Source: a virus. Taken from it: a stretch of DNA of 29,406 nt. The stretch is taken from the IMG/VR virus record IMGVR_UViG_3300042907_000027, positions 1-29,406 of that record; one strand, written 5' to 3'. Position 1 is the first letter of the stretch; every line of letters begins with the position of its first letter. The notes under the pieces were generated by a model. It ran no database searches, was not told the DNA's origin, and saw only the letters and a list, made by a program, of their open reading frames with translations. The translations under genes were made by a program, and so were the position numbers. Below, piece by piece: positions 775 through 26,889 of this stretch.

Positions 775-2193
775 TTATTTTCCGCCAAACATCTTGCTGA
801 GACCATAACCTGTTGCAACAGTTTGACCAAACTGAGCCAGTGGCGAGGGTTGATAGACGCTGGCAGGACCGCTTGATTCGGTGGTAGTTGATGTTGGTAC
901 CTGTAAACCTCTGATAGCCGCATTCAAATAGGCCGTGTTGCCACGTCCATAGTCGCGCTGGTTCAAGAAGTCTTGGTAGGCCTGATCCAAAGAACGCTGA
1001 GCTTGTTGCTGTTGTGTGGCACCAGCAGCTTCCAGACCTGCAATGTTTTGCATGCCCATCTGTTGGGTCTGTTGACCAAGGGCACCAAGGGCCTGACCAG
1101 ACTGCAGCATACGAGTAAAGTCCTGATTAGACAAGGCACCGACTTGCTGAGCCGCCTGCAGGTTTTGTGTGCCTGCTTGACCAGCCAGTTGTCCTTGCAT
1201 TTGACCAAGGGCTCCGATCTGGGCACCTGCTTGACCGTATCTTGCAAGGTCTGCACCTTCAAGACCAGCAGATGCTTGGCCCATAGCGGCTTGCTGTTGG
1301 GCACCAGCCAACATGCGTTGGTAGTCTGCGGCAGTTAAGCCGGCAGTCGTTTGACCAAGAGCCTGCTGCTGTTGAGCTGCTTGTAATTGACGACCACGAT
1401 CAGCTTGCAGCAACTGGCCAGCTTGTCCATAGCCTTGTTGAAGGGCTGCAGATTGTTGGGCCAGGGTAGATTCTTGGGTATCACGCAAAGCGCGTCCAAT
1501 AGCCTCGCCGCTGCGACTACCGCCAAAAGTACCTGCCTGAATGGCGCGGTCTTGGATATTGGGCAGCAGGTTTTCTTTTAAGTTGCGAGCACCAAGTTCC
1601 CCAATACGATTGACCACCTGATCGGTGTATGGGTTCATGTAGTCTTGGATGTTGCCAAGACCGGTTTGAGCTCCTTGCTGCGACAAGTCAGAAGCCTGTT
1701 GAAGGTAAGGCGTTGCCAGACCAGCTGCTGCTTGAGTTCCCTGGCTAGTCAGTTGACCAGCTTGCTGGAAGTACGGTTGGGCCAAGGCGCTGGTATCGCC
1801 AACTTGCTGACGCAAGAGGCCGGCTGACTCGCCTAGCATTGGCTGAGCCGTTGAGTATGGGTTGTAGCCTAGAGCCGTGTTGATATACGGTTGAGCCGCT
1901 CCCAACGTGCTGCCAGTTGATCCTTGAATGTTCTGCTGAGCCAGGTTCATAAAAGGAGAGTACTGGCTCTCAAGACTGGTTGCCTTGTCGTAAGCCGTCT
2001 CTTGCGCCGGATCAAGATTAGCAATCCGCTGCTGACCATACGCTTGATAAGGCTCGGCAGCAATGGCGTTTGCCCTGCTGATCAAGCCCTGCGTATAGTC
2101 GTTGTACCAAGCAGGAACGTTGGTCGTGGTCTCGCCATAAGTCGTGACCGACGGCGGAGGACTGCCCTGAAACAGGAAGTCGGTGAACGCCAT
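775..2193 (-). CDS. Gln/Ala-rich internal virion protein candidate
   Basis: A 472-residue protein with a clear Shine-Dalgarno (GGGAGCC) before its ATG. The N-terminus carries WYNDYTQGLISRA and YQAYGQQRIANLDPAQ. A conserved-looking core near residues 183-243 has YMNPYTDQVVNRIGELGARN followed by GTFGGSRSGEAIGRALRDTQ. The C-terminal half is dominated by Q, A and G in short heptad-like repeats (AGAQQQAAMGQASAGLEGAD and similar), probably long helices. I recall this core arrangement from unnamed phage structural proteins. It lies between a membrane-active protein candidate upstream and a long charged protein downstream, the position where podoviruses encode ejection proteins. The role is inferred from composition and order; no enzyme motif is visible. 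Confidence 0.75.
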   Translation of the reverse strand: MAFTDFLFQGSPPPSVTTYGETTTNVPAWYNDYTQGLISRANAIAAEPYQAYGQQRIANLDPAQETAYDKATSLESQYSPFMNLAQQNIQGSTGSTLGAAQPYINTALGYNPYSTAQPMLGESAGLLRQQVGDTSALAQPYFQQAGQLTSQGTQAAAGLATPYLQQASDLSQQGAQTGLGNIQDYMNPYTDQVVNRIGELGARNLKENLLPNIQDRAIQAGTFGGSRSGEAIGRALRDTQESTLAQQSAALQQGYGQAGQLLQADRGRQLQAAQQQQALGQTTAGLTAADYQRMLAGAQQQAAMGQASAGLEGADLARYGQAGAQIGALGQMQGQLAGQAGTQNLQAAQQVGALSNQDFTRMLQSGQALGALGQQTQQMGMQNIAGLEAAGATQQQQAQRSLDQAYQDFLNQRDYGRGNTAYLNAAIRGLQVPTSTTTESSGPASVYQPSPLAQFGQTVATGYGLSKMFGGK

Positions 2194-2194
2194 A

Positions 2195-4174
2195 TTAGGC
2201 TCCCTTCAAGTATGACAATGGGCTCTTAGCATCTGGGCTGATTTGGCCGCGTGACAGAGCTTGTCCTTTTTGCTTTCGCAAGTTGGCGCGCATTTGGTCA
2301 AGCTGGGCAGCCCCTGCCTTAGAGGATCCGTTTCCAAGCATTGCCACGGTCTCGGCGTCCATCACGTATTCGCCGTCAGACAAGACAGCATTCACGTCGT
2401 CTGAACGACCGTCTGCACCTCCACCAATCTTCATGCTGTGCACTTGGCTGAGACCCCCCATAGCTTTCGCTTGTGGTGGGTTGCCATATTGGTAGTAGGC
2501 CATCTTGGGGTCACGAGGACGCTGAGGCATTTGAGGACGCTGTGATTGTTGTGGAGGCATGCCTTGTTGGAGACCACCTTGAGGACCACCCTGAGGCGGC
2601 ATCATAGGAGGGCGTCCGCCTTGTGGGGGCATTGGACGACCGGTCTGGGGACCACCCATACCAGCAGGGCGTTGTTGCGCCATTGCAGCCATCATCTGGG
2701 CTCTGCGGGGATCTTGCATCTGACCGCCTTGGGCAAAATGCTTCATCTGAATCAAGCCACCCATTTTTGCAGCAATTGGAATCGGCACAAAGCGCTCATT
2801 TGCAAAGAAGTTCTGCTCACCACCTTGACCAGCTTGACCATACTTTGTCAAGTCGCCTTGATAGTCCTTGCGGTCTCGCAGATAAGAATACAAGTCAAGG
2901 CCCTTGTCGAAGCTCTTGTCACGAGTACCGCCGCTAGTTGGCTTTGGAGGCTCTGGAGGTTTGTTTGGATTCAGCAACTGGTCTGCAGCTACCACACCAG
3001 CAGCCGTGTACCAAGGATGCTCTTTGGCATAGTCCCAGGCAGATGTTCCAAGGTCCTTAGCCGTTCCCATAAGGTCGCCGCTTGTAAACTTGTCCCACGT
3101 GCCCATCTCACCAATGTTTTCACTACCGTAAGAGATGTTGGGTTGAGTAGGAGTTACGCCACTTGCACTGAGGGTGCCACTAGGAGATGGTTTTCCATAC
3201 AGAGGATCGTTAAACCGTTGCCAAGTCTCATTTACACCAGTCATTTCAGAACCAGCACCTGGTCCGTAAGTAAACTGGTCCATGCCTTGAACAGGGACTG
3301 TCACGCCCTGTGCTCCACCCATCCTGCTTAGGTAGGGTGAATCAGTTAGCTGCATGCCTGGACCTGATGTTACGTTAGGCGATCCTGACAAGCTGAAGTT
3401 AGGTTCACCGTAGATGTCAAAAGAATTTGCCGGTGTAAACGGATTGGCTTGGAGCCCTGGTCCCGATGGGAGTCCAGTGGTCAGGTCAATCTTAGGCACC
3501 GAGTAGTCCATTGACAACGGAGAAGAAGGAGTAATAGAGATTGACTCTCCTGGAAGTGTTATCTTCTTCGGTGTTACTCCTCTTAATGGGCTGTCTTGTA
3601 CAGGAACTTCAGGCGTTAACTCAGGAGCAGGTGCCGGCGCACTTGCTTCTAAAGGAGGAAGGTCAGTTCCTGTAGGGGGAGAGGTAAGATCAACTGGAGT
3701 TGACGAAGCCAACGGCTCTGTGAAATAAGAACCGCTTTCCATTGGGGGTCCAACGAAGTTTTCACCCAGGCCAGCAGGAGCAGGTGGTCCCATAGGACCT
3801 TCGCCCGCAGCACTAGGACCAAAAGCTGCTTGTGCAGCTCCGGCCGTTAAGCCAGCTATTGCACCGCCCTTGATCGCTTCGTCAAAGCTTTCGCCTTGAA
3901 CTAGGCCTGCTGCCGTATTTGCACCAGCAACAGCCAGACCTGTACCAACAGCTGCACTTGTTCCAAAGTAAGCGGCCGCGGCAGGTCCTAGATATACGGC
4001 AGCTGCAACGCTTGCAATAGCCGTAAGCGGATCGTCCAAGATAGGCTGAATGACATATTTGTCAACGGCTTGTCCAACGTCAGAGAGTGCATCTCCAACG
4101 CTTTCAACGACGTCTCCAACGGCTTCAACAACGCCACTAACGGCGCCAGTAACTGCTTCTACTACTGCACTCAT
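2195..4174 (-). CDS. Membrane-active internal virion (ejection) protein candidate
   Basis: A 659-residue protein whose ATG overlaps the upstream stop as TAATG, with AAGGAG upstream. Residues 1-40 are amphipathic V-x-EAV-type repeats. Residues 50-92 and about 103-118 are Ala/Gly-rich hydrophobic stretches that could enter a membrane. The middle (about 120-430) is rich in Pro, Gly and Ser and looks disordered. A Met/Pro/Gln/Gly-rich linker follows. The C-terminus, from about residue 586, carries GRSDDVNAVLSDGEYVMDAE and then MLGNGSSKAGAAQLDQM, a compact motif I recall at the ends of many phage structural proteins. The composition suits a protein packaged in the capsid and ejected into the host envelope. 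This role is inference; no catalytic residues are evident. Confidence 0.75.
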   Translation of the reverse strand: MSAVVEAVTGAVSGVVEAVGDVVESVGDALSDVGQAVDKYVIQPILDDPLTAIASVAAAVYLGPAAAAYFGTSAAVGTGLAVAGANTAAGLVQGESFDEAIKGGAIAGLTAGAAQAAFGPSAAGEGPMGPPAPAGLGENFVGPPMESGSYFTEPLASSTPVDLTSPPTGTDLPPLEASAPAPAPELTPEVPVQDSPLRGVTPKKITLPGESISITPSSPLSMDYSVPKIDLTTGLPSGPGLQANPFTPANSFDIYGEPNFSLSGSPNVTSGPGMQLTDSPYLSRMGGAQGVTVPVQGMDQFTYGPGAGSEMTGVNETWQRFNDPLYGKPSPSGTLSASGVTPTQPNISYGSENIGEMGTWDKFTSGDLMGTAKDLGTSAWDYAKEHPWYTAAGVVAADQLLNPNKPPEPPKPTSGGTRDKSFDKGLDLYSYLRDRKDYQGDLTKYGQAGQGGEQNFFANERFVPIPIAAKMGGLIQMKHFAQGGQMQDPRRAQMMAAMAQQRPAGMGGPQTGRPMPPQGGRPPMMPPQGGPQGGLQQGMPPQQSQRPQMPQRPRDPKMAYYQYGNPPQAKAMGGLSQVHSMKIGGGADGRSDDVNAVLSDGEYVMDAETVAMLGNGSSKAGAAQLDQMRANLRKQKGQALSRGQISPDAKSPLSYLKGA

Positions 4175-4629
4175 TATTGTGCTCCTTCGCGTTTTGTTCC
4201 CAGTTGCAAGGCGACTTGATATTCGCCATTGTCAAGCATCTGGACGTTGTAGCCCATGCCAGGATTAGGAGGATTCTTTGCAACATTGCGGAAGATATTC
4301 AAGAGACTCTGGTCGCTGAACTGGGTGACCAAGGTGTCAAAGCCATTTTTGTAGGCATCAACCACAAAGGCAAATCCAGAAGCCATAAAATTAGGAGCCG
4401 TGTCTGCATTCAGTGCTCTAAATGTGCCCTTGCTGGGAGTCTTTGGCGACGCATGCACAACGTAGACTGTGTTGCCATATCGATAGAACTTGCTATCAGG
4501 CATCTGCACTTCTTTGACGAAGGCGGCGTATACGAATTCAATCGGATACTCTGATTTTGTGTTCTCGGCGGCTACTTTAATTAGCTCACCAAGTTCAAGC
4601 ATTTGTTGTCTGCTGTCAACGACTGGCAT
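4174..4629 (-). CDS. Uncharacterised 151-aa phage protein
   Basis: A 151-residue protein beginning MPVVDSRQQMLELGELIKVA, with AGGA upstream of the ATG and a one-base stop/start overlap with the next gene. Its latter half has FVVDAYKNGFDTLVTQFSDQ and NPPNPGMGYNVQMLDNGEYQ, which suggests a compact alpha/beta fold ending in a beta hairpin. I do not recognise the family firmly. The size and place (just before the internal virion proteins) recall the small acetyltransferase-like internal protein gp13 of T7, but no acyl-CoA binding loop (R/Q-x-x-G-x-G/A) is present, so that is only a structural guess. It directly follows the ketosynthase gene, so a link with the acyl-carrier pair is also possible. 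The function is unknown. Confidence 0.85.
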   Translation of the reverse strand: MPVVDSRQQMLELGELIKVAAENTKSEYPIEFVYAAFVKEVQMPDSKFYRYGNTVYVVHASPKTPSKGTFRALNADTAPNFMASGFAFVVDAYKNGFDTLVTQFSDQSLLNIFRNVAKNPPNPGMGYNVQMLDNGEYQVALQLGTKREGAQ

Positions 4630-4631
4630 AG

Positions 4632-5753
4632 TTAGATCCTCATGTTGAAAAGCGCAGCACTGAACACGTTGCCCATGCCAGCACTCAAGCTTAACACTAT
4701 CCCTTCAGGAGCTTTAATCTCTTCTGAGAGGAACACATGATCCTCCTCACTTCGATTCAAGATCCCAGGGACAGTTCCCTTTTCTAAATCATTGAACAGC
4801 AAGAGGGTCTCTAACAGTCCGCTCGCTCCCATCGTATGGCCGATTCGCTGCTTGTACGATGTCGCTACAAAACCGCTCATGCACCTTTCAAGCGCAGCTT
4901 TTTCGGCCGCGTTGTTGGACTTAGTCCCAGTGCCATGAGTTTTCACGATTTTAATTTGTTCTGGGGAAATTTGACAAAGTTCTGCAGCGCCCTCGATCGC
5001 TCGTCTAAAACCTTGCCCATCCTCACGCTGCCCGATGGCATTCGTCGCCACTTCCGTAGCTGTCCAGGCCGATAAAAGCTCGGCTCTTGGCGTAAGCCCT
5101 GATCGTGTCAAGGCGTCCTCAGATTCGAATACGGCAAACGCGGCACCCTGGCCTATATAGAACCCAAAGTTGGTTGAATCGAAGGCACTGGGGACCACCT
5201 GGTGAGTCTCGGCCATGCTCTCGGTCAGGGTTGCCTTGGCTTCCCCGAAGAACTGGAGGGTCATATTATTGACCTGGTCCTCAACGGCTAGTACGATGAC
5301 CCGGTCAAAGCCGTAGAACTTTATCAGGGTCTGTACGTCCATCAGGGCCTTGAGGCTAGATGTACAGGCCGTGGCATCAGTTGCCGTGTGATCTATCTCT
5401 CCGCACTGCGCAGCAACGCGGCCAGCATAGATCTGGGTCAGTGACAGGGGAAGAATCTTGTAGTTGTAGGTCCAGTCATTTTCCCTGTTGAGCTTGGCAC
5501 CTTCATTTGCAAAGTTGCTGTTTCCTGAGGCCAATATGAATGCCGTCTTGCCGGGCTGGCTATCGCGCAGCAGTTTTAGCAGGTCGGCGTCTAAGACTTT
5601 TTCAGCTACCTTATGGGCTGGGTTGATCAATCCGGTCTTGACCCGGCTATAAGTCTCAGGAAACAGGTGTACTTTTTGGGGAAAGGTATGGTCTGAAATG
5701 AGTGTTGTATCTTCCGTGTAAGCTATTCGGCTTTCGGTCAGGAAGATCCTCAT
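4632..5753 (-). CDS. Beta-ketoacyl-ACP synthase (KAS I/II-type thiolase-fold enzyme)
   Basis: A 373-residue ketosynthase. Enzymes of this family condense an acyl chain held on the active-site cysteine with malonyl-ACP. The expected residues are in order: Cys130 in DATACTSSLKAL, His273 in KTHGTGTKSN, Lys301 in TSYKQRIGH and His306 in GHTMGASG. This is the Cys-His-His triad plus lysine of KAS I/II rather than the Cys-His-Asn of KAS III. The protein is shorter than typical FabB/FabF (about 410), with a reduced N-terminus. The C-terminal GFGG gating loop is replaced by SAGMGNVFSAALF (about 357-369). The start is fixed by an ATGA overlap with the ACP gene, so the two are translationally linked. 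No other fatty-acid genes are visible. The substrate and product are unknown. Confidence 0.88.
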   Translation of the reverse strand: MRIFLTESRIAYTEDTTLISDHTFPQKVHLFPETYSRVKTGLINPAHKVAEKVLDADLLKLLRDSQPGKTAFILASGNSNFANEGAKLNRENDWTYNYKILPLSLTQIYAGRVAAQCGEIDHTATDATACTSSLKALMDVQTLIKFYGFDRVIVLAVEDQVNNMTLQFFGEAKATLTESMAETHQVVPSAFDSTNFGFYIGQGAAFAVFESEDALTRSGLTPRAELLSAWTATEVATNAIGQREDGQGFRRAIEGAAELCQISPEQIKIVKTHGTGTKSNNAAEKAALERCMSGFVATSYKQRIGHTMGASGLLETLLLFNDLEKGTVPGILNRSEEDHVFLSEEIKAPEGIVLSLSAGMGNVFSAALFNMRI

Positions 5754-6046
5754 ACGAGCCAGCCCTTGGCTTCTTCGTAATTTGCTGGCTTTCTACGTCC
5801 CCATTCATTCAGGAAGTCAAGTAGCTGCTGCGGATTTTCGCCAAGCATCTCCTTGCTTTTTTCGTCTTCAACGTCGTAGATCTCACAGAGATAGACCGTG
5901 CACATCAGCATGTCTAAGCTATCAAGCCCGGTTTCCTTTAAGATCATCTCCATAGAGTCAATCTCTTTGACCCCACTATTGCTAAATGGCCTGGCTTTCT
6001 TAGCTACGTCGTTCAATAACTGTATAAATTCTTCATTTGTCATCAT
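5750..6046 (-). CDS. Acyl carrier protein-like protein
   Basis: A 98-residue acidic, helical protein carrying GLDSLDMLM at residues 40-48. This matches the 4'-phosphopantetheine attachment site of acyl carrier proteins (consensus G-x-DSL), with Ser43 the predicted attachment point. The preceding VKEIDSMEMILKETG and following VYLCEIYDVEDEK fit ACP helices I-III. About 25 residues beyond the usual 75-80-residue ACP form a Trp-containing C-terminal tail (FLNEWGRRKPANYEEAKGWL). The ATG overlaps the upstream stop (ATGA), and its own stop overlaps the ketosynthase start in the same way. No phosphopantetheinyl transferase is visible, so the host enzyme would be needed to make the holo form. Tandem Met codons leave a 3-nt uncertainty in the start. 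Confidence 0.85.
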   Translation of the reverse strand: MMTNEEFIQLLNDVAKKARPFSNSGVKEIDSMEMILKETGLDSLDMLMCTVYLCEIYDVEDEKSKEMLGENPQQLLDFLNEWGRRKPANYEEAKGWLV

Positions 6047-6270
6047 TCAGCTATCCCAACAAAAAGTTGTGCCCATTCACGCCAGTCGGTGTAAGCAAAA
6101 GGGTCGGGAACGTTCTTTTGGCTAAGTCCAGAGATTACGCAGAACTGTTGCCCCCACTCCTGCCATTTTGTTTCATCGTCTAGTCTTGAGAGTGCGCCAT
6201 AGGTTGACAGGTCCATTACGACCTGATCGGCCCAATCGCGCAAGCCCATTATAGCGGGTTGCGTGATCAC
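6043..6270 (-). CDS. Small Trp-rich phage protein of unknown function
   Basis: A 75-residue protein placed between the gp10-like hub gene and the ACP gene. It starts with GTG in a GTGA overlap with the upstream stop; an internal ATG at 6249, giving MGLRDWADQVV, is an alternative. It contains two similar Trp-centred segments, LRDWADQVVMDLSTYG near the N-terminus and YTDWREWAQLFVG near the C-terminus, linked by WQEWGQQF. I recall small proteins of this pattern (LRDW-x-x-QVV) beside phage tail genes, without a named function. The overlaps on both sides suggest production together with the tail hub and the ACP. A role in tail assembly is inferred only from position. Confidence 0.8.
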   Translation of the reverse strand: MITQPAIMGLRDWADQVVMDLSTYGALSRLDDETKWQEWGQQFCVISGLSQKNVPDPFAYTDWREWAQLFVGIAE

Positions 6271-7913
6271 GTGGAACTTTCTGCAACACCGCCGAGCATA
6301 GAGCCGTCGGCTTCACCAACGTGCGCAATGATCTGGCCCATCTGGTAATCGCCGTTGATGGTGTTAGAGGTAAACTTGAATCGAAGCTCGCGCCGTTCTT
6401 CTTTGAACCAGACGATCTGTTCGTAAGGGGTAGCTGGCTCTGCATAGATTGTGCGCTCAGGTCCTTGGACTTCTAGCGCCTTGGCGTTGGCTCGTCCTGT
6501 CAACTGGACAGTCATGTTTCCAGACTGCACAAAGTCAGGCTCAATGGCTTCAACCCGGATCCACTTGTTCTTAGAGCCTCCTGAAGGAACCAGCATACTC
6601 ATGTCTGCCGTCTCAAAGTAGGAAGGAACCGCCGTGATAAACTGGCCGTCAATCTCGTTGACGTCATGCTCGTGCTGCCAGACCTTATAGCCTTCCTCAG
6701 GGACCGTGACCCGCTGGTCACCTGCTTCCGTGATCCTAAGGTCACTTGCCTCGGTGATCCGGTTGTTTGACACAAAAGTGGACGCTTCTAGACCGCACAA
6801 TAATGGGGCCGCGTAAATAGGCGACCATTCGCCAGCTGTCCGCCCGTTGTTGGGCAATTCGGTGTCATACCAAGTATTCTCTCGAACGTTGTAGATGATG
6901 GCATGGGTGCATTCGGTTGCATCTCCGCGCGGATAGCACCACCAAATTTCGCCGTATCTGGGGACCTTGTAGGCCCACACACGTTGGGTAGCAGCCCTGT
7001 TTAGGCCGTCATAGAAGTAGTTGATGTTCAAGTTGTTGGGGATCTCTCGAACTACACCGTTAAACATCAGCATGCGGTCTGTGCCAAGCCAGTAGTAGAT
7101 GCCGTCATACTCGATGACCGAATTGGCTGACAAGATGCTGGAATAAGGGCTGATCGTGTCAAACTGGAAGATCTCAGTGCCTCCTACAAAAGAAGCGCGT
7201 ATGACTGCATCCGCACTCCAAAAGAGACCTGCTGGAGCGTTACCTGGACCGCCCCGAAGTGCCAAAGCTCTGACAATCTTTTGACCTGCCACGCGAGCAT
7301 TTCCTGAACCAACACCCGTCAAGTCGGTTGGGGCTCCGGCTACTGACCAACCAACAACACCGTCATTTCCAAAATACATCAGGTAGGGGTGCAAGGCAAC
7401 TACGCCTCCCGTGGCGCTGACGCCAGCAGGAAATGTTGTTATCTCAGTCAGGCGATCTGTACCGGTCATGCTGCCCATAAAAATCTGACCGCCAGCAGTG
7501 TTGCAAAGACATCCAGCATTTGGAGCTACTTGGGCAACAATCATGTTTGCAGCTGGTATGGACTGCGTGTCATAGATTACGTCAAACTGCCAAAGGTTGT
7601 CGTCGCTGACGTTGTAGGTCATCGGAGTGCGGTCTGTGATCAGGCTTGTATTGCCACTGGCGTCGATGGTAAAACGCTCAACAAAACCAGAACTGCCTGA
7701 ATGAAAGTAAGTCAGGCCGTTCTCTGTGAACGTCTTAACTCCTCGGCTTATCTCAGTCAAGTATCTGTTGATGACGGTGTAGCCTCCAACCTTACGAGGA
7801 AGGCCACGTTGCCAACGGACCCATTGTCCATCGACGTGGTAGTCGCCCTCGTACCTGGTACCGTCTCGCTTGATGCCGGGCAGCGACTTCAGGATGACTG
7901 GGGTTGTTGCCAT
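6267..7913 (-). CDS. P22 gp10-like tail hub / nozzle (packaged-DNA stabilisation) protein
   Basis: A 548-residue protein starting MATTPVILKSLPGIKRDGTR, with the ATG in a TGATG overlap with the preceding stop. The N-terminus (LPGIKRDGTRYEG, WVRWQRGLPRKVGGY) and the later beta-strand blades (PYLMYFGNDGVVGWS, DGIYYWLGTDRMLMFNGVV, IYNVRENTWYDTELPNNGR) match what I know of gp10-like tail hub proteins. In P22 gp10 plugs the head after packaging; in SU10-type phages the relative forms the nozzle. P22 gp10 is 472 residues, so this one is somewhat longer, with an extra beta-rich C-terminus (about 400-548). Its neighbours, a gp11-like adaptor and a beta-rich tail protein, support a tail-machine role. 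Confidence 0.8.
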   Translation of the reverse strand: MATTPVILKSLPGIKRDGTRYEGDYHVDGQWVRWQRGLPRKVGGYTVINRYLTEISRGVKTFTENGLTYFHSGSSGFVERFTIDASGNTSLITDRTPMTYNVSDDNLWQFDVIYDTQSIPAANMIVAQVAPNAGCLCNTAGGQIFMGSMTGTDRLTEITTFPAGVSATGGVVALHPYLMYFGNDGVVGWSVAGAPTDLTGVGSGNARVAGQKIVRALALRGGPGNAPAGLFWSADAVIRASFVGGTEIFQFDTISPYSSILSANSVIEYDGIYYWLGTDRMLMFNGVVREIPNNLNINYFYDGLNRAATQRVWAYKVPRYGEIWWCYPRGDATECTHAIIYNVRENTWYDTELPNNGRTAGEWSPIYAAPLLCGLEASTFVSNNRITEASDLRITEAGDQRVTVPEEGYKVWQHEHDVNEIDGQFITAVPSYFETADMSMLVPSGGSKNKWIRVEAIEPDFVQSGNMTVQLTGRANAKALEVQGPERTIYAEPATPYEQIVWFKEERRELRFKFTSNTINGDYQMGQIIAHVGEADGSMLGGVAESST

Positions 7914-9103
7914 CAGTAGGTTCCGCCCTGAATCGGATCGAGTCCAATAGCTACTTGTGCAGCCGCTTGCGTGGCGGCAGTAAAGATTGCAATACCTGTT
8001 GAGGTCCCGCCTAGGTTAATCAGTGCGTTTCCTGCCGTAGTGGCCCCGGTGCCTCCGTCAGAGACGCTGATAGGAACGGCCACGCCGCCGGTATCTGCAG
8101 CAACCACGTTGGTGCCGTCGGAATACAAGATGGCTCGTGAGCCTTGGTTGATAGCCGTACCTGCAGCAATAGAGGTCTTAATAGTTAGAGTATACGGGCC
8201 GGTCGTGCTGTTGGTCACCCAGTATTGCTGGACTGTTTGCGGCACGATGACCGTACGGTTGCCAGTCAAGGCGCCAGTGAAGTTGTAGGCAATGCGGTTT
8301 AGCTCGCTGCCAGACAAGACGTAGTTGCCTGTTCCAGCCACGCTGATTGACGTGTAGTCAAATGCAAAGACTGGTGACTGACCGTAGCCAAGGGTGTAGA
8401 AGTTGTTACCATCGGTAAAGATAATAGCAGAATCACCGGGCTGGAAGCTTAGGCTAGAAGAACCATTGATCGTCTGGGAGCCAGGAGGATCGACGACAAG
8501 TGCTCCGGTACCTTCATTGCGAAGCTGCAGGAACCAGTTGTCGCCAAGCGTACCGGCTGCGTCAGAAGTAAGGGTACCTGCTCCACCATTCCAGATGAAT
8601 GTCTTGGCACGATCATCGGTGCCCGCTGTGTAGTTGCTTCCAAAGAACGTGACAGGCATGGCCAAGGACAAGAGTGACCCAATGGCCACCAAACCAGTTC
8701 CAGCTAAAGACGCTGCATTCGCAGTTGATACGGCCGCCCCATATTGGAATGCAAGCCATGTGCCACCAGCCGTGGTGTTGTCAGTCAGGTAGATCTGCCA
8801 GACTTGGCCGGCAGTAGGAGCTGCAATTTGGGTGCCGCTGTTGTTCCTAATGATGAAGGAATTTGACCCAACGTTGTTGAACAGGATGGTCTGGCCTGTA
8901 GAAGCTTCCAGGGCGCTAGGCAGGGTCAAGCTCCAAGGACCTGAGGTGGCCGTGACATCCATGATGCCAGCAATCAAGTCAGTCGATGGGGCAGTCTCCA
9001 GGGCCCAGTCATACGTGGTGTTAGCTGTCAAGCTGACTGCAGCGTAGCTGATCTCTGCAGGAGAGATGTTGCTGCCGCCAAAGATGTTGGTGTAGACGGT
9101 CAT
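7913..9103 (-). CDS. Beta-rich virion/tail protein with repeated modules
   Basis: A 396-residue Thr/Gly/Ala-rich protein beginning MTVYTNIFGGSNISPAEISY, with GAGG upstream of its ATG. It is built from recurring beta modules: strands around GQTILFNNVGSNSFIIRN and GTGALVVDPPGSQTING are each followed by a W/F-containing closing element (GQVWQIYLTDNTTAGGTWLA; GDSAIIFTDGNNFYTLGYG). A later SRAILYSDGTNVVAADT resembles the same closing strand. The end carries ISVSDGGTGATTAGNALINL, typical of phage fibre or baseplate-attached proteins. I recall this architecture next to gp10-like genes in aquatic podoviruses, annotated only as structural. It probably decorates the tail or anchors fibres, which is inference from order and composition. 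Confidence 0.8.
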   Translation of the reverse strand: MTVYTNIFGGSNISPAEISYAAVSLTANTTYDWALETAPSTDLIAGIMDVTATSGPWSLTLPSALEASTGQTILFNNVGSNSFIIRNNSGTQIAAPTAGQVWQIYLTDNTTAGGTWLAFQYGAAVSTANAASLAGTGLVAIGSLLSLAMPVTFFGSNYTAGTDDRAKTFIWNGGAGTLTSDAAGTLGDNWFLQLRNEGTGALVVDPPGSQTINGSSSLSFQPGDSAIIFTDGNNFYTLGYGQSPVFAFDYTSISVAGTGNYVLSGSELNRIAYNFTGALTGNRTVIVPQTVQQYWVTNSTTGPYTLTIKTSIAAGTAINQGSRAILYSDGTNVVAADTGGVAVPISVSDGGTGATTAGNALINLGGTSTGIAIFTAATQAAAQVAIGLDPIQGGTY

Positions 9104-9104
9104 A

Positions 9105-9758
9105 TTAGGCCTCGTTTCTTACTGCACCACGGTCAAGGACCTTGCTCATGTCTTCACCTTGCAGCGCTTGTGCTGCCGATGCGTACATGGTTTGCCAGAC
9201 TGGGATGCGTTCGTCGTTCTTCAGGAATGGAGTAGCTTCCAACAAGGTAGCATAGAGCAACAAGTTTGGAGCATACTGGGTAAGCCAGTTGGTCTGAGTG
9301 TTCTCATCCAACAAGGCAGGCAATTCGTAGTACAGAATCTCAATTGGGTAAGCAGCGTCCGGAGTTGGTGCAATGATCCAATTGGTGTAGTTATAGTCGG
9401 CATAGAAGACAGGCTCGTCAACTTGCGTCTCGTCAGGCCAGTAGCTTCTGACGTATTCATATCCGCGCGTAAACAGTTGTTGTCTGGTATTGTTACCAGT
9501 CCCTGTTCCGATGTTCATTGAGATGGTGTCGCGCCAGCGGTCGGGCTTGGCAAGGACTGCTACGCCAGCTTGCAAGGTCGTGACAACAGCCACCTGAAAG
9601 CCCTGAATCTTGAGGTCGCGGCTGATGCGGCGTTCTGCAAAATTGATCAGGCTAGGAATCTGTGCAAAGACAAGCGGGTCCGTGACCAATGAAGCACCAC
9701 GTTCCAGGTAGCTGCGGACGTCGTTCTGCAGCGACGTAAAGGTCATTGCTTGTGGCAT
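9105..9758 (-). CDS. Head-tail adaptor protein (phage gp11 / SU10-adaptor-like)
   Basis: A 217-residue mainly helical protein. Near the N-terminus SLQNDVRSYLERG, then IPSLINFAERRISRDLKIQG, match the helical start of gp11-like adaptors, which form the ring joining portal and tail hub. The middle is beta-rich (YEYVRSYWPDETQVDEPVFY, IEILYYELPALLDENT). The C-terminal helix NLLLYATLLEATPFLKNDER is also typical. The ATG overlaps the endolysin stop (TAATG), with AGAGG upstream. The gene immediately precedes the beta-rich tail protein and the gp10-like hub, the expected neighbourhood. The family assignment is from motif memory. The window also holds a gp4-like neck protein at 18962-19948, so the two probably occupy different ring positions. 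Confidence 0.75.
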   Translation of the reverse strand: MPQAMTFTSLQNDVRSYLERGASLVTDPLVFAQIPSLINFAERRISRDLKIQGFQVAVVTTLQAGVAVLAKPDRWRDTISMNIGTGTGNNTRQQLFTRGYEYVRSYWPDETQVDEPVFYADYNYTNWIIAPTPDAAYPIEILYYELPALLDENTQTNWLTQYAPNLLLYATLLEATPFLKNDERIPVWQTMYASAAQALQGEDMSKVLDRGAVRNEA

Positions 9759-12004: not shown

Positions 12005-14410
12005 TTAAAAAGTAATTGTTCCAGATGAAGTGAATGTGTAAATGTAGTTACCACCACTTGTTGTAAATGTTGGTGAACCAGTTGTTGATTTTGCGGGAGC
12101 AAAAGAAGTTGAGTAGGAAATAATCACAATACCAGAACCGCCTGCTGGTGAAGTTACTGTTTGTGCGCCACCAGAGCCGCCACCTGTGTTGACACCACCA
12201 GCCGCTGAACCGGAGCCAGTAGACGAGCCAGTTCCGCCGCCACCAGAGCCGCCAGACACAGTTCCCGTTCCACAGCTACCGCCTCCGCCTCCTGCGTATG
12301 TTACCGATGAGCCTGAAATGCTTGACGCAGTACCGTTACCGCCAGCGCCGCCTGTAGTGCCAGATGCGTTACCGCCCGTTGCGCCAGCACCGCCACCTCC
12401 GCCACCACTTGCGGCACTGCCATTACCGCCGCTGTTGCCTTGGCTTGGCGATGTAGAGGGTGTGTTGCCAGCCGCACCAGCGCCACTGGCGTATGAACCA
12501 CCGCCACCAGAGCCGCCAGCATTAGCCGCACCAGCAACCGCACCCCCGCCGCCGCCTGCTGATGTAATGGTAGAAAATACAGAATCACTGCCGTTGGCGT
12601 TTGTAGCGCCGCCGCCTCCGACAGTTGCCGTGTAGGTCGTGCCAGATGCTACGGATAGCGTTCCCGTTCTAAAACCGCCCGCTCCTCCGCCACCGATATA
12701 AGCACCGCCGCCGCCAGCAACAACCAGATAACTGACCGATGAAGGTGCTTGACCTGACAAAGAACCGCTAGATGTAAACGTGTGAATTGTGTTGCCGCCA
12801 GAAGTAGTGACCGTTCCACCAGTAAACTTTTGCGGGGAGGTGTAAGAGATGATGACTACGCCAGAGCCGCCAGCACCGCCATTTTGGTTTGCGCCAGCAC
12901 CACGACCACCGCCACCGCCACCGCCTGTGTTGGCTGTGCCAGCACTTCCTACGGTGTCACCTGAAGCGCCGCCATTACCGCCGCCGCCAGAACCACCAGT
13001 GCCAGTTGGAAGGTTACTGTTTGTTCCGCCACCTCCACCACCTGCGTAAGTTCCACTGCCTAAAGCCGCAGATACAGTTGTACCAGCGCCACCATTACCA
13101 CCAGATGTGCTGGCTGTACCATTTGCACCTACAGCCCCTGCGCCGCCGCCGCCGCCACCAGTGTTGATAGCACCTGTGCCGCCCGTGTTTCCTTGACCAG
13201 AAGTTCCAGCCGCACCAGATGCGCCTGCACCACTGGCGCTACCTGTTCCGCCTCCACCTGAACCACCAGTAAGAGGCGCGGCGTTAGTGCCTGCGGTGCT
13301 TCCAGAGCCGCCGCCACCGCCGCCAACCGCTGAAGTGGAAACTGCGGTAAAAGATGAAGCAGTGCCACTTGTTCCAGCAACCGAAGCAGAAGTGCTACCC
13401 GCACCTCCAGCCCCTACCGTAACCGTATAAATTGAATTGGCATCTAGTACAAGTCCAGAGCCAGTAAGTAAGCCACCAGCACCGCCGCCGCCCGAACCGT
13501 TTGCAGTTCTACCTGCACCAGCACCACCAGCCACTACCAAGTAACTTGCCGTCACAGATGACAAGGGGCTAAGTGCGCCAGAAGATGTGAATGTGTGAAT
13601 GAAGTTACCGCCTGATTGGGTAACAGTTCCACCACCAAATAATTGTGTTGCGCTTGTGTAGGAAATGATGACGATGCCTGAGCCGCCTGCGCCAGAAGCT
13701 TGACTAAGTCCACCGCCACCTCCACCGCCACCAGTGTTTGCTGTTCCAGCAGTTCCAGCAGTTGAGCTATTGCTTCCAGTGCCACCCCCTCCTGTGCCAG
13801 CCGCTCCAGAAGTGGAGGTTGCCCCGCCGCCACCGCCGCCAGCGTAAGTTACAGAAGCGCCAGAGATGGAAGATGCCGTGCCTGCTCCACCAGCACCGCC
13901 AGCGGCGGCAGATGGAGCGGCGCTTCCTGCGCTTGTCGCACCACCTCCACCACCACCATTTGACTGTGAGCCGCCAGTTGGTTGAAAACTGTTTCCTCCA
14001 GAAGTTCCTTGACCGCTTGTGCCAGCTCCGCCAGAGTAAACGGTGGTTTGGTTATTGTTTACGCCGCCACCGCCGCCAGAGCCGCCAGAAAGGCCAACAG
14101 AGTTACTGCCCCCACCACCTCCACCGCCTACTGAGGCGGTTAAAGAACCAAATTGTGAATTGGAACCATTACCGCCTTGACTTCCGCTATTCGTTCCTGC
14201 AGCGCTACCGCCTGCGCCAACAGTCACTGTGTATGAGAGAGTTGGGTTAAGCGATGTAGTTCCAGTTAAGTACCCGCCAGCGCCGGCACCTCCACGCCAA
14301 CCACCTCCACCTCCACCAGCCACCACAAGGTAGCTAGCAGTGACGGACGATAAACCTGTCCACCCGAAAGCAGCTAATGCAGCAGCACCAATCTTGGATA
14401 AACGAGGCAT
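12005..14410 (-). CDS. Glycine-rich tail fibre adhesin with three tandem modules
   Basis: An 801-residue protein, extremely rich in Gly, Ser, Ala and Thr, with AAGGAT before its ATG. After a 20-residue leader (MPRLSKIGAAALAAFGWTGL) come three copies of a roughly 250-270-residue module. Each opens with SSV-(TA)-SYLVVAGG, passes through many GGGGGG and GGSGGGG runs and TVTVGAGG/YAGGGGG strands, and closes with GIVIISY followed by a beta hairpin ending HTFTSSG or YTFTSSG. This matches the phage glycine-rich domain and resembles the polyglycine-II sandwich of the T-even-like adhesin gp38. The likely role is receptor binding at the fibre tip. It follows two fibre genes. Its complement reads as Pro-rich frames, which are not genes. 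Confidence 0.85.
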   Translation of the reverse strand: MPRLSKIGAAALAAFGWTGLSSVTASYLVVAGGGGGGWRGGAGAGGYLTGTTSLNPTLSYTVTVGAGGSAAGTNSGSQGGNGSNSQFGSLTASVGGGGGGGSNSVGLSGGSGGGGGVNNNQTTVYSGGAGTSGQGTSGGNSFQPTGGSQSNGGGGGGATSAGSAAPSAAAGGAGGAGTASSISGASVTYAGGGGGGATSTSGAAGTGGGGTGSNSSTAGTAGTANTGGGGGGGGLSQASGAGGSGIVIISYTSATQLFGGGTVTQSGGNFIHTFTSSGALSPLSSVTASYLVVAGGAGAGRTANGSGGGGAGGLLTGSGLVLDANSIYTVTVGAGGAGSTSASVAGTSGTASSFTAVSTSAVGGGGGGSGSTAGTNAAPLTGGSGGGGTGSASGAGASGAAGTSGQGNTGGTGAINTGGGGGGAGAVGANGTASTSGGNGGAGTTVSAALGSGTYAGGGGGGTNSNLPTGTGGSGGGGNGGASGDTVGSAGTANTGGGGGGGRGAGANQNGGAGGSGVVIISYTSPQKFTGGTVTTSGGNTIHTFTSSGSLSGQAPSSVSYLVVAGGGGAYIGGGGAGGFRTGTLSVASGTTYTATVGGGGATNANGSDSVFSTITSAGGGGGAVAGAANAGGSGGGGSYASGAGAAGNTPSTSPSQGNSGGNGSAASGGGGGGAGATGGNASGTTGGAGGNGTASSISGSSVTYAGGGGGSCGTGTVSGGSGGGGTGSSTGSGSAAGGVNTGGGSGGAQTVTSPAGGSGIVIISYSTSFAPAKSTTGSPTFTTSGGNYIYTFTSSGTITF
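12008..12742 (-). repeat. Glycine-rich adhesin module 3 of 3
   Basis: Residues 557-801 of the adhesin. It opens with SSVSYLVVAGGGGAYIGG, lacks the TA pair seen in modules 1 and 2, contains a unique Cys in GGGGGSCGTG, and ends the protein with YTFTSSGTITF. It is the most divergent copy. Confidence 0.8.
12743..13561 (-). repeat. Glycine-rich adhesin module 2 of 3
   Basis: Residues 284-556 of the adhesin. It repeats the module 1 framework (SSVTASYLVVAGGAGAG at the start; GVVIISYTSPQKFTGG and HTFTSSGSLS at the end). The variable Gly-run linkers differ in length and residues, as expected for diversified binding loops. Confidence 0.8.
13562..14350 (-). repeat. Glycine-rich adhesin module 1 of 3
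   Basis: Residues 21-283 of the 801-aa adhesin. The module opens with SSVTASYLVVAGGGGGG and closes with GIVIISYTSATQLFGGG and HTFTSSGALS. It includes TVTVGAGG and YAGGGGGG strands separated by Gly runs. Boundaries are set by the recurrence of SSV...SYLVVAGG. Confidence 0.8.
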
Positions 14411-18669: not shown

Positions 18670-18965
18670 GGGGTCATGTACTCGTCGTTTTGGCCGAGGA
18701 TAAAGCTGTTGTCATCTTCTGTGACCAAGCCAGCTGGATCGCTATACAAAGGAGCATCAGGCCGTACAAATGGCAGGGTGATAGTGTCAGGCTGACGAGG
18801 TGGCAGGCGATAAGGATCGAGTTGGTCGAGATCCTCACGGCAGACACGAAGGCCAGGTGAATTTGGGTCAGACATCAGCTGAGTCAGGCTCATCTTCCGG
18901 CTGCAACGGTCACAAAGACCAATGCCCAAAGTGCTGAGTCCGCGAGTGTCTAAGTAGATGCTCAT
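18666..18965 (-). CDS. Small phage protein with CxxC...C zinc-ribbon-like motif
   Basis: A 99-residue protein overlapping both neighbours by ATGA. It has Cys18 and Cys21 in CDRCSRKM and Cys43 in LRVCREDLDQLDPYRLPPRQ, a possible metal site with three cysteines and no obvious fourth ligand. The pattern CDxC...GLxVCxxDxDxxxP is one I recall in small proteins encoded beside phage neck genes. The C-terminal half (ITLPFVRPDAPLYSDPAGLV) is proline-rich and probably extended. The link to the gp4-like neck protein immediately upstream suggests a structural or assembly role, which is inference from position. I cannot name the family. Confidence 0.8.
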   Translation of the reverse strand: MSIYLDTRGLSTLGIGLCDRCSRKMSLTQLMSDPNSPGLRVCREDLDQLDPYRLPPRQPDTITLPFVRPDAPLYSDPAGLVTEDDNSFILGQNDEYMTP

Positions 18966-19948
18966 CTTGTGTAGACTGCAATATTTGGAGTCAGATAAAT
19001 CGGAGAGTCGTCGCGTTCTTCGTTCTCGGCCTCAAGCAGCGAACGTTGAGCCTTTTGGTCCAAGATGGCGATCATCTGGGGATCCACTGTTGGAGTCTCT
19101 TCTGCAATCCTGGCAGCCAAGACGTAGACAACAGCGTCATACCAACGCTGCGGTATCTCAATCTCTTCAGTCATTGTGCCTACATCCATGATGTATCGTT
19201 TGACCCATACAATCACTTGGGCCGTGATGAACTGGTCAGAAGGCACAGGCCAAAGATACAAGATAGGGTTGTTGAGCTGCCTGTTCACCCAGAATTGCAA
19301 TGGACGACCTTGAAATGCCTTGTTAGGCAGGTTGACGTAGTCGTCACGGTTTAAGCGAGCCATCGGAATCTCTGTCGGCGTATTGCCAAGAAAGATTACT
19401 GACTGATTAAGAACTCCAGTAGTAGCTCTAACTCTGAAATATAGGGTCGCTAGAGATCCTTGAATGTCAGTCCATGTGGTTTCATTGGCTGATGCGTTTG
19501 GGTTGGCTACGGTGGCCAGAGTGGTCCAGGTGGCACCATCGTCTGATGTCTCCAGGGCGTAGCTTGTTGAGGCTCCATTCCAATAGACACCGACGTTGGT
19601 GACTTGCGTTTCAGTAGGGAAGATTGTTTGGTAGATCGTAGACGTAGTGGTTGACGTACCTGTGACTTCTTGCAGGGTCCGCAAGTTAGTGTTGAGGATG
19701 TCAACGATACCGTTGGGCATCTCGATCAAGCCTTGCGCCTGATAGAGAGGCATGATGTATTTTTCAATGCACCACAGCTGCAAGCCACGATTGGCCAGCG
19801 CACTTAACACTAGATAGAGCGAGTCAAGAGCAAAGCTGATCTGCTCAGATGAGATGCCCTCAGGAGGGACACGGCAACGACGATACGCGTGGTCAATGAC
19901 CTTTCGCGTATTGAAGACTGTCGTGCTTACTGTGCCTGAAACTGCCAC
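18962..19948 (-). CDS. P22 gp4-like neck / tail accessory factor with inserted beta domain
   Basis: A 328-residue protein starting at GTG (19946-19948), supported by GGAG about eight bases upstream. The N-terminal helices (RKVIDHAYRRCRVPPEGISS; FALDSLYLVLSALANRGLQL) resemble gp4-type tail accessory factors, which bind the portal after packaging. P22 gp4 is only 166 residues. Here residues about 101-190 look like an inserted beta-sandwich (VTNVGVYWNGASTSYALETS, DDGATWTTLATV, TLYFRVRATTG), similar in style to discoidin-like carbohydrate-binding domains. The gp4-type fold resumes at IPMARLNRDDYVNLPNKAFQ and ends with a helix around RWYDAVVYVLAARIAEE. The assignment is by motif; the insert's role is unknown. 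Confidence 0.75.
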   Translation of the reverse strand: MAVSGTVSTTVFNTRKVIDHAYRRCRVPPEGISSEQISFALDSLYLVLSALANRGLQLWCIEKYIMPLYQAQGLIEMPNGIVDILNTNLRTLQEVTGTSTTTSTIYQTIFPTETQVTNVGVYWNGASTSYALETSDDGATWTTLATVANPNASANETTWTDIQGSLATLYFRVRATTGVLNQSVIFLGNTPTEIPMARLNRDDYVNLPNKAFQGRPLQFWVNRQLNNPILYLWPVPSDQFITAQVIVWVKRYIMDVGTMTEEIEIPQRWYDAVVYVLAARIAEETPTVDPQMIAILDQKAQRSLLEAENEERDDSPIYLTPNIAVYTR

Positions 19949-26469: not shown

Positions 26470-26889
26470 TTAGATGAATGCTCTGATCGCAGTGGGATCT
26501 CCAGTAACCTTGGCAAGAATGTCTAGGTCATTGAACATCACAAATTCGATCTCCTCGTCATCGGACCTTACAGTCCAACGATCTCCTCCGTATTTAGGTG
26601 CACGGACGTAGGCACCAACTTCACACCACGAACCTTCGGGCCACGGTTCCATAGTGTTTCGATTCTTGTAAGCTAAGCAGCCGACTGCCACAACCTTGGC
26701 GATCTGTGTATTGCTGGCTTCTGTCTTTCTTGCTTCTTCCGGGATGTAGATGCCGCCAGCCGTCTGATTCTTGGCCTTGCGGACCTGGACGATCACACGT
26801 GAACCCAAGGGCTCGTGACAGCAATCGACTGCTGGGAAGGCCTCGTCCAATGAGGCGTAGTTGAAGGACATGGGGGTTTCAAGTAGCAT
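26470..26889 (-). CDS. GroES-like co-chaperonin (Cpn10 family)
   Basis: A 139-residue protein with GGAG six bases upstream of its ATG. The Cpn10 core begins at about residue 26: EPLGSRVIVQVRKAKNQTAG, then the mobile-loop GroEL-binding element GGIYIPEEA (about 45-53), which parallels GGIVL in bacterial GroES. Later elements are TQIAKVVAVG (61-70), WPEGSWCEVGAYVRAPKYGG (83-102) and FVMFNDLDILAKV (116-128), the usual closing strand. An extra N-terminal 25 residues (MSFNYASLDEAFPAVDCC) and a short C-terminal tail (DPTAIRAFI) are not in standard GroES (about 97). T4 gp31 is a known phage precedent, used with host GroEL to fold its capsid protein. The position just before scaffold and capsid genes suggests the same job. 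Confidence 0.87.
   Translation of the reverse strand: MLLETPMSFNYASLDEAFPAVDCCHEPLGSRVIVQVRKAKNQTAGGIYIPEEARKTEASNTQIAKVVAVGCLAYKNRNTMEPWPEGSWCEVGAYVRAPKYGGDRWTVRSDDEEIEFVMFNDLDILAKVTGDPTAIRAFI

What the first reader, a model, noticed from the sequence alone, without database searches (positions are those of the whole stretch)
4632..6046. Acyl carrier protein and ketosynthase pair inside a phage virion operon
Two consecutive genes encode an ACP (GLDSLDM, Ser43) and a KAS I/II-like enzyme with an intact Cys130-His273-Lys301-His306 set. They overlap by ATGA and follow the tail hub and a 75-aa protein with similar overlaps, so they look like a fixed part of the late operon rather than cargo at a boundary. 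No malonyl transferase, ketoreductase or phosphopantetheinyl transferase is visible. Possible roles (inference): a private condensing unit that draws on host malonyl-ACP to alter host lipids or to make an acyl group attached to a virion or ejection protein; or a decoy that titrates host fatty-acid enzymes. I do not know of a described function for such a pair.
Basis: partly seen in the sequence, partly recalled or inferred. Interest (0 to 1): 0.85.

Follow-up and report, generated by a model that had tools for sequence, protein, structure and literature searches.

The report
Phage acyl-carrier, ketosynthase and acyltransferase-fold cassette
A large group of uncultured short-tailed phages carries its own fatty-acid-type carrier protein and condensing enzyme, usually built into the virion gene cluster next to a protein with an acyltransferase fold and the genes for the proteins injected into the host, which suggests (but does not prove) that these phages make a private acyl group, perhaps to attach it to an injected protein.

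Summary
Window 5750-6046(-) is an acyl carrier protein (ACP) and 4632-5753(-) a FabF-like ketosynthase (KS). In 186 distinct ACPs the Asp-Ser is invariant; in 194 distinct KSs Cys130 is kept in 193 and His273, Lys301 and His306 in all. Both are under strong purifying selection, and more than 500 viral contigs encode the KS. It sits in the slot of P22 gp14 and T7 gp13, just before the ejection proteins. The cassette is not rigid: in about 40 loci of one subclade the pair lies in an early region beside a SNF2 helicase, and in one clade the KS is deleted while the ACP persists under selection. No malonyl transferase, ketoreductase or phosphopantetheinyl transferase was found in 16-19 related genomes. 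Best reading: a working, host-fed acyl-ACP module whose product goes to a dedicated acceptor, with d151 and the ejection proteins the leading candidates. An ordinary host-lipid role is nearly as likely. d151 lacks the CoA-binding loop; its catalysis is unproven.

The parts
5750..6046 (-). acyl carrier protein (ACP), 98 aa; phosphopantetheine Ser43 in GLDSLD; its end overlaps the KS start by 4 bases
   Evidence: Ser43 invariant 186/186; PDB profile hits are ACPs; AF2 model pLDDT 92, top matches carrier proteins; NG86 omega 0.078
4632..5753 (-). beta-ketoacyl-ACP synthase (FabF/FabB-like), 373 aa; C130, H273, K301, H306; Met360 at the FabF Phe400 gate position
   Evidence: Pfam PF00109/PF02801, PDB FabF E 8e-25, conservation 193-194/194, omega 0.072
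4174..4629 (-). d151: 151-aa GNAT-fold protein directly after the KS; no CoA pyrophosphate loop
   Evidence: AF2 pLDDT 90.6, order a-a-b-b-b-a-b-a-b-b; the 50 best PDB structural matches are all GNAT-type acyltransferases, best E 1.4e-5; next to the KS in 144/145 late-operon loci; loop motif in 1/148
6043..6270 (-). u75: conserved 75-aa protein between gp10 and ACP, function unknown
   Evidence: conserved in place in most late-operon relatives
6267..7913 (-). gp10-like tail hub / head-closure protein
   Evidence: phrog_3287 virion structural protein E 8e-31
2195..4174 (-). 659-aa protein at the position of an ejection protein (possible acceptor)
   Evidence: position after d151; weak phrog tape-measure match; function inferred
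775..2193 (-). 472-aa DNA-ejection-like protein (possible acceptor)
   Evidence: phrog_4287 DNA ejection protein E 6e-7

Best explanation
The pair is a working acyl-thioester module. Inferred steps: the host phosphopantetheinyl transferase activates Ser43; the phage KS loads an acyl chain on Cys130, condenses it with a malonyl unit made by the host, and leaves it on the phage ACP; the acyl-ACP then serves a dedicated acceptor reaction. The most likely next partner is d151, a GNAT-fold protein in the slot of P22 gp14 and T7 gp13, which would transfer the acyl group to a membrane-active ejection or internal protein before packaging. Shown: the identities, the intact and conserved active sites, selection, linkage and the GNAT fold (predicted). 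Inferred: catalysis by d151, the acceptor, and the acyl group.
For: Catalytic residues kept in 193-194/194 KS and 186/186 ACP; omega near 0.07 for KS, ACP and d151. d151 follows the KS directly in 144/145 late-operon loci, most often with a 4-base overlap, also where gp10 and its neighbours are no longer recognisable (L045, L067, L070, L087). d151 is GNAT-fold; matches include the AHL synthase TofI, whose family uses acyl-ACP (general knowledge). In one clade (5 contigs) the KS is deleted but the ACP keeps Ser and omega 0.10: the ACP serves something other than the KS, and d151 is still there. No locus was seen with KS but no ACP where the upstream sequence is present. No FabD, ketoreductase or PPTase in related genomes. 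Order in P22: 10-26-14-7-20-16; in T7: 12-13-14-15.
Against: d151 lacks the (Q/R)xxGx(G/A) CoA loop (1/148) and no catalytic base is identified. It also occurs after gp10 with no pair beside it (L194, L216), so it has a job of its own, probably assembly. In about 40 loci the pair is in an early region, away from d151; where the late region is on the contig d151 is still in the genome, but shared lineage alone could explain that. No sequence similarity of d151 to P22 gp14 or T7 gp13. No acylated virion protein has been observed.
Confidence: 0.33

Rival explanations
1. Host-lipid auxiliary metabolism: the pair plugs into the host type II fatty acid synthase, changing chain length, unsaturation or flux of host membrane lipids during infection; host FabD, FabG, FabZ and FabI supply the other steps. 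d151 is only a neighbour.
For: All other FAS enzymes looked for are missing and must come from the host. Relocation to an early, replication-linked region without d151 beside it fits a soluble metabolic role. Viral acpP and fabF have been reported as AMGs (PMC8224337; PMC11705849; PMC10653327).
Against: Does not explain why a private, very divergent ACP is always paired with the KS, the near-perfect ACP-KS-d151 adjacency in the late operon, or ACP retention after KS loss. The family does not look like a recent copy of host fabF (about 27% identity; one deep clade).
Confidence: 0.3
2. The GNAT-fold d151 is a non-catalytic assembly factor (as T7 gp13 is thought to be a scaffold), and ACP-KS makes an acyl-ACP used as a structural or regulatory ligand in assembly, as ACP is used in some other large complexes.
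For: d151 has no CoA loop; T7 gp13 is named 'probable scaffold protein' in Pfam and P22 gp14 'head morphogenesis'.
Against: A structural ACP would not obviously need the strictly conserved KS; early-region copies.
Confidence: 0.15
3. The pair makes a diffusible acyl product (signal or inhibitor), with d151 acting like a LuxI-type synthase.
For: TofI is among the structural matches of d151.
Against: Ordinary acetyltransferases match d151 better by E-value and TM-score; virion-operon position; LuxI signature residues were not compared.
Confidence: 0.07
4. Decoy that titrates host fatty-acid enzymes or phosphopantetheine.
For: Small acidic ACP; no complete pathway.
Against: A decoy KS would not need Cys, both His and Lys conserved in 193-194 of 194.
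Confidence: 0.05

Closest known systems
FabF / FabB (KAS II / KAS I) type II condensing enzymes
   Same: ketoacyl-synthase sequence match, Cys-His-His-Lys set, two conserved Thr after the first His
   Different: about 27% identity, shorter N-terminal region, Met instead of Phe at the FabF Phe400 gate, altered second loop (NAIGQREDG), own deep clade
AcpP acyl carrier proteins
   Same: carrier-protein fold, DSLD phosphopantetheine site, acidic helix II
   Different: below Pfam cut-off; extra C-terminal helix; no fabG or fabD beside it
Viral fatty-acid AMGs (acpP, or fabG-acpP-fabF in Rhodobacteraceae prophages, PMC8224337; acpP in Schitoviridae phage R22Y, PMC11705849)
   Same: ACP, and in some prophages ACP and KS, in phage genomes
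   Different: those prophage clusters have the host-like order fabG-acpP-fabF; here a phage-specific family without fabG, coupled to a GNAT-fold gene and ejection genes, in hundreds of contigs
P22 gp14 (DUF2824) and T7 gp13
   Same: size (151 and 138 aa) and slot between tail proteins and ejection genes; one DUF2824 phage protein matches d151 structurally (E 3e-3)
   Different: no sequence similarity; those phages have no ACP-KS between
PHROG 35856 and 28189 (unknown function)
   Same: match the KS (E 3e-42) and the ACP (E 6e-4; 5e-8 for the early-region copy)
   Different: no function assigned; d151 matches no PHROG clearly

Membership tests
KAS I/II ketosynthases | ketoacyl-synt N and C domains over curated cut-off | tested here: met
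   35.4 and 62.3 bits against 20.8
KAS I/II ketosynthases | catalytic Cys-His-His and Lys | tested here: met
   C130 193/194, H273, K301, H306 194/194
KAS I/II ketosynthases | decarboxylative condensation with malonyl-ACP | not testable with these tools
   needs enzyme assay
KAS I/II ketosynthases | GFGG gating loop with Phe400 (FabF) | tested here: not met
   G-Met360-G-N; Met in 194/194; mapped on the alignment to PDB 4ddo. This is a feature of the FabF type, not needed for the wider ketosynthase family
Acyl carrier proteins | phosphopantetheine Ser in DSL motif | tested here: met
   Ser 186/186
Acyl carrier proteins | carrier-protein helical fold | tested here: met
   AF2 pLDDT 92; top structural matches are carrier proteins, though E is only 0.06 at best
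Acyl carrier proteins | Pfam PF00550 over cut-off (a library threshold) | tested here: not met
   13 of 50 relatives match weakly, best E 0.0017; window copy no match; early-region copy 18.3 bits against 20.8
GNAT acyltransferases (d151) | GNAT fold | tested here: met
   predicted topology; all 50 best PDB matches are acyltransferases of this fold
GNAT acyltransferases (d151) | acyl-CoA pyrophosphate loop (Q/R)xxGx(G/A) | tested here: not met
   1/148 members
GNAT acyltransferases (d151) | acyl transfer activity | not testable with these tools
   needs assay
P22 gp14 / T7 gp13 families | sequence homology to DUF2824 or PF11090 | tested here: not met
   hhalign probability below 1%; only position, size and one structural match to a DUF2824 protein
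LuxI-type AHL synthases | LuxI signature residues | not tested
   only fold similarity to TofI seen
Viral fatty-acid AMG | recent host origin of the gene | tested here: inconclusive
   phage KSs form one deep clade, but the bacterial outgroup is sparse and long-branched

The most novel reading that the evidence does not exclude
A phage-encoded acylation pathway: a private ACP and ketosynthase build a specific acyl group which the GNAT-fold morphogenesis protein transfers from acyl-ACP to ejection proteins so that they can enter membranes. The GNAT-fold proteins in the same slot in P22-like and perhaps T7-like phages might then be acyltransferases fed by the host.
Probability: 0.22. Interest if true: 0.92.

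Novelty: new variant of a known kind. Interest (0 to 1): 0.72.

Why it matters
Viral fatty-acid genes are usually listed as metabolic cargo. Here an ACP-ketosynthase pair is an old, selected gene set of a large, uncultured phage group, coupled in most members to an acyltransferase-fold protein and the ejection genes. If acylation of ejected proteins is real, it would be a new way of preparing proteins to enter the host envelope and would offer a function for the poorly understood gp14/gp13-slot proteins. If it is lipid metabolism, it is a long-kept rather than a casual cargo case. Either way it can be tested with few proteins.

Tried and rejected
Chance or misread ORF: rejected (conservation, synteny, omega). 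Recent host cargo: not favoured (about 27% identity to bacterial FabF-like proteins; one deep clade). Decoy: disfavoured (invariant catalytic residues). Prophage carriage: only 1 close relative in the 84,980-species genome collection, a Balneolaceae MAG contig that may be a binned phage. Pfam, PHROG and PDB sequence searches of d151 gave nothing, so its fold rests on structure prediction. hhalign of d151 to P22 gp14 and T7 gp13 was negative. Promoter and terminator scan no better than shuffles. Literature searches on phage acyl carrier protein, acylated virion proteins and P22 gp14 as acetyltransferase returned no paper with such a system. The KS itself and the ACP-KS or ACP-d151 complexes were not folded (two monomer jobs only).

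Full report
WHAT IS THERE. On the minus strand of the window lies a late operon: adaptor 9105-9758 (SU10 adaptor, PF24175), 7913-9103, gp10-like hub 6267-7913 (phrog_3287), a 75-aa protein 6043-6270, ACP 5750-6046, KS 4632-5753, d151 4174-4629, then 2195-4174 and 775-2193 (DNA-ejection-like, phrog_4287). Starts and stops overlap by 4 bases at three junctions; KS to d151 is a 2-base gap. Gene set and order are those of a short-tailed phage (inference).

IDENTITY OF THE PAIR. The KS passes both Pfam ketoacyl-synthase models and aligns with FabF structures over residues 66-369 with all active-site motifs. The ACP is too divergent for Pfam alone, but relatives hit PP-binding weakly, the family profile finds ACPs among PDB chains (best E 3.6e-4, 59 of 60 listed), and the AF2 model is a confident helical bundle matching carrier proteins. 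In the phages of GenBank only one close relative was found, MW202545 (Manatee Spring; KS 56%), annotated 3-oxoacyl-ACP synthase, with the same gene order. In IMG/VR, 523 and, with another query, at least 540 stretches encode a relative. Among bacterial and archaeal genomes one contig gave a close relative, in a Balneolaceae MAG, so these are mostly not prophages of sequenced hosts.

CONSERVATION. Across 186 distinct ACPs Asp42-Ser43 never changes. Across 194 distinct KSs Cys130 changes once (to Arg, L288) and His273, Lys301, His306, Thr275, Thr277 and Met360 never. NG86 omega is about 0.07-0.08 for KS, ACP and d151 (dS is high, so values are rough). The last four bases of the ACP gene, which carry the KS start, are ATGA or GTGA in 268 of 276 loci counted (a contig can be counted more than once).

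THE THIRD GENE. Directly after the KS comes d151 in 144 of 145 distinct late-operon loci with enough sequence (exception L069), most often with a 4-base overlap. It stays there where gp10 and the adaptor are no longer recognisable (L045, L067, L070, L087). No sequence library identifies it, but the AF2 model (pLDDT 90.6) has GNAT topology and the 50 best PDB matches are all acyltransferases of that fold, among them TofI, an AHL synthase; that LuxI-type enzymes take acyl chains from acyl-ACP is general knowledge. The model also matches a phage protein of DUF2824, the P22 gp14 family (E 3e-3). P22 gp14 (151 aa) and T7 gp13 (138 aa) occupy the same slot, between tail proteins and ejection proteins. 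Sequence comparison with them is negative, so homology is not shown. d151 lacks the CoA-binding loop (1/148); this suits an acyl-ACP donor or a non-enzymatic role.

NATURAL EXPERIMENTS. (a) In five contigs (L142, L143, L146, L148, L161) most of the KS is deleted, leaving a short remnant before d151, while the ACP keeps DSLD and evolves at omega about 0.10. Their contigs (6-43 kb) hold no other KS but are incomplete. (b) L194 and L216 have gp10 followed by d151 without the pair; contigs are incomplete. (c) In about 40 loci of one KS subclade the pair, with the same overlap, lies between a SNF2 helicase gene and small early genes (DUF3310 and others). In G022 both positions are visible: d151 alone after gp10, the pair 15 kb away on the other strand. 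Records of this type in which d151 was found are G022, G023, G026, G031 and G032; the others tested are fragments, and the 38-kb one read, G024, lacks the gp10 region. The KS tree puts the early-region copies inside the late-operon ones, one or two moves (unrooted, weak outgroup). So the pair acts in trans and is movable; its usual place is the late operon.

WHAT IS MISSING. No PPTase (PF01648) in 16 related records, no malonyl transferase (PF00698) or ketoreductase-type SDR (PF13561) in 19, while control genomes rang. The module must be fed by the host.

INTERPRETATION. Shown: an intact, selected ACP-KS pair of a phage-specific family, normally coupled to a GNAT-fold protein and ejection genes. 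Inferred: acyl-ACP is made and used. Two readings compete. Acylation of ejection or internal proteins via d151 explains adjacency, fold, missing FAS enzymes and ACP retention after KS loss, but has no demonstrated catalysis and must accept early-region copies and pair-less d151. Host-lipid adjustment explains the early-region copies and the dependence on host FAS, but not the d151 linkage or the ACP retention. I put them at about 0.33 and 0.30.

NOVELTY. ACP and fabF genes in viruses are known as AMGs (PMC8224337; PMC11705849; PMC10653327), and PHROG families 35856 and 28189 match the two proteins without function. The coupled ACP-KS-GNAT-fold cassette, its spread, and its deletion and relocation series were not found described in the papers searched (open-access only). 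Hence a new variant of a known kind.

Noticed in passing
window 26470-26889 (-): GroES-like co-chaperonin gene (phrog_3188, E 6e-11) between portal and capsid genes, also in MW202545; no GroEL noticed in the window.
   Followed up: no
window 18962-19948 (-): Structural protein with an F5/8 type C (galactose-binding) domain (just below cut-off) inserted in an SU10-adaptor-like protein.
   Followed up: no
window 12005-14410 (-): 801-aa glycine-rich repetitive protein in the fibre region.
   Followed up: no
L288:5720-6829: Only KS with the active-site Cys changed (ASARASS); a real inactivation or a sequencing error.
   Followed up: partly
L040 (MW202545.1): Record is titled Siphoviridae but its gene set (gp10-like, SU10 adaptor, ejection proteins, transglycosylase) looks like a short-tailed phage.
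   Followed up: no
OR846615, OR846916, OR848703, OR849884 and similar phage records: Unannotated Listeria, Enterococcus and Staphylococcus 'phage' contigs with FabF-like matches (23-29% to the query); probably host DNA in the assemblies.
   Followed up: no
L087 (JAGYJQ010000016.1): Balneolaceae MAG contig with ACP-KS-d151; a possible hint at the host group, or a phage contig binned by chance.
   Followed up: partly
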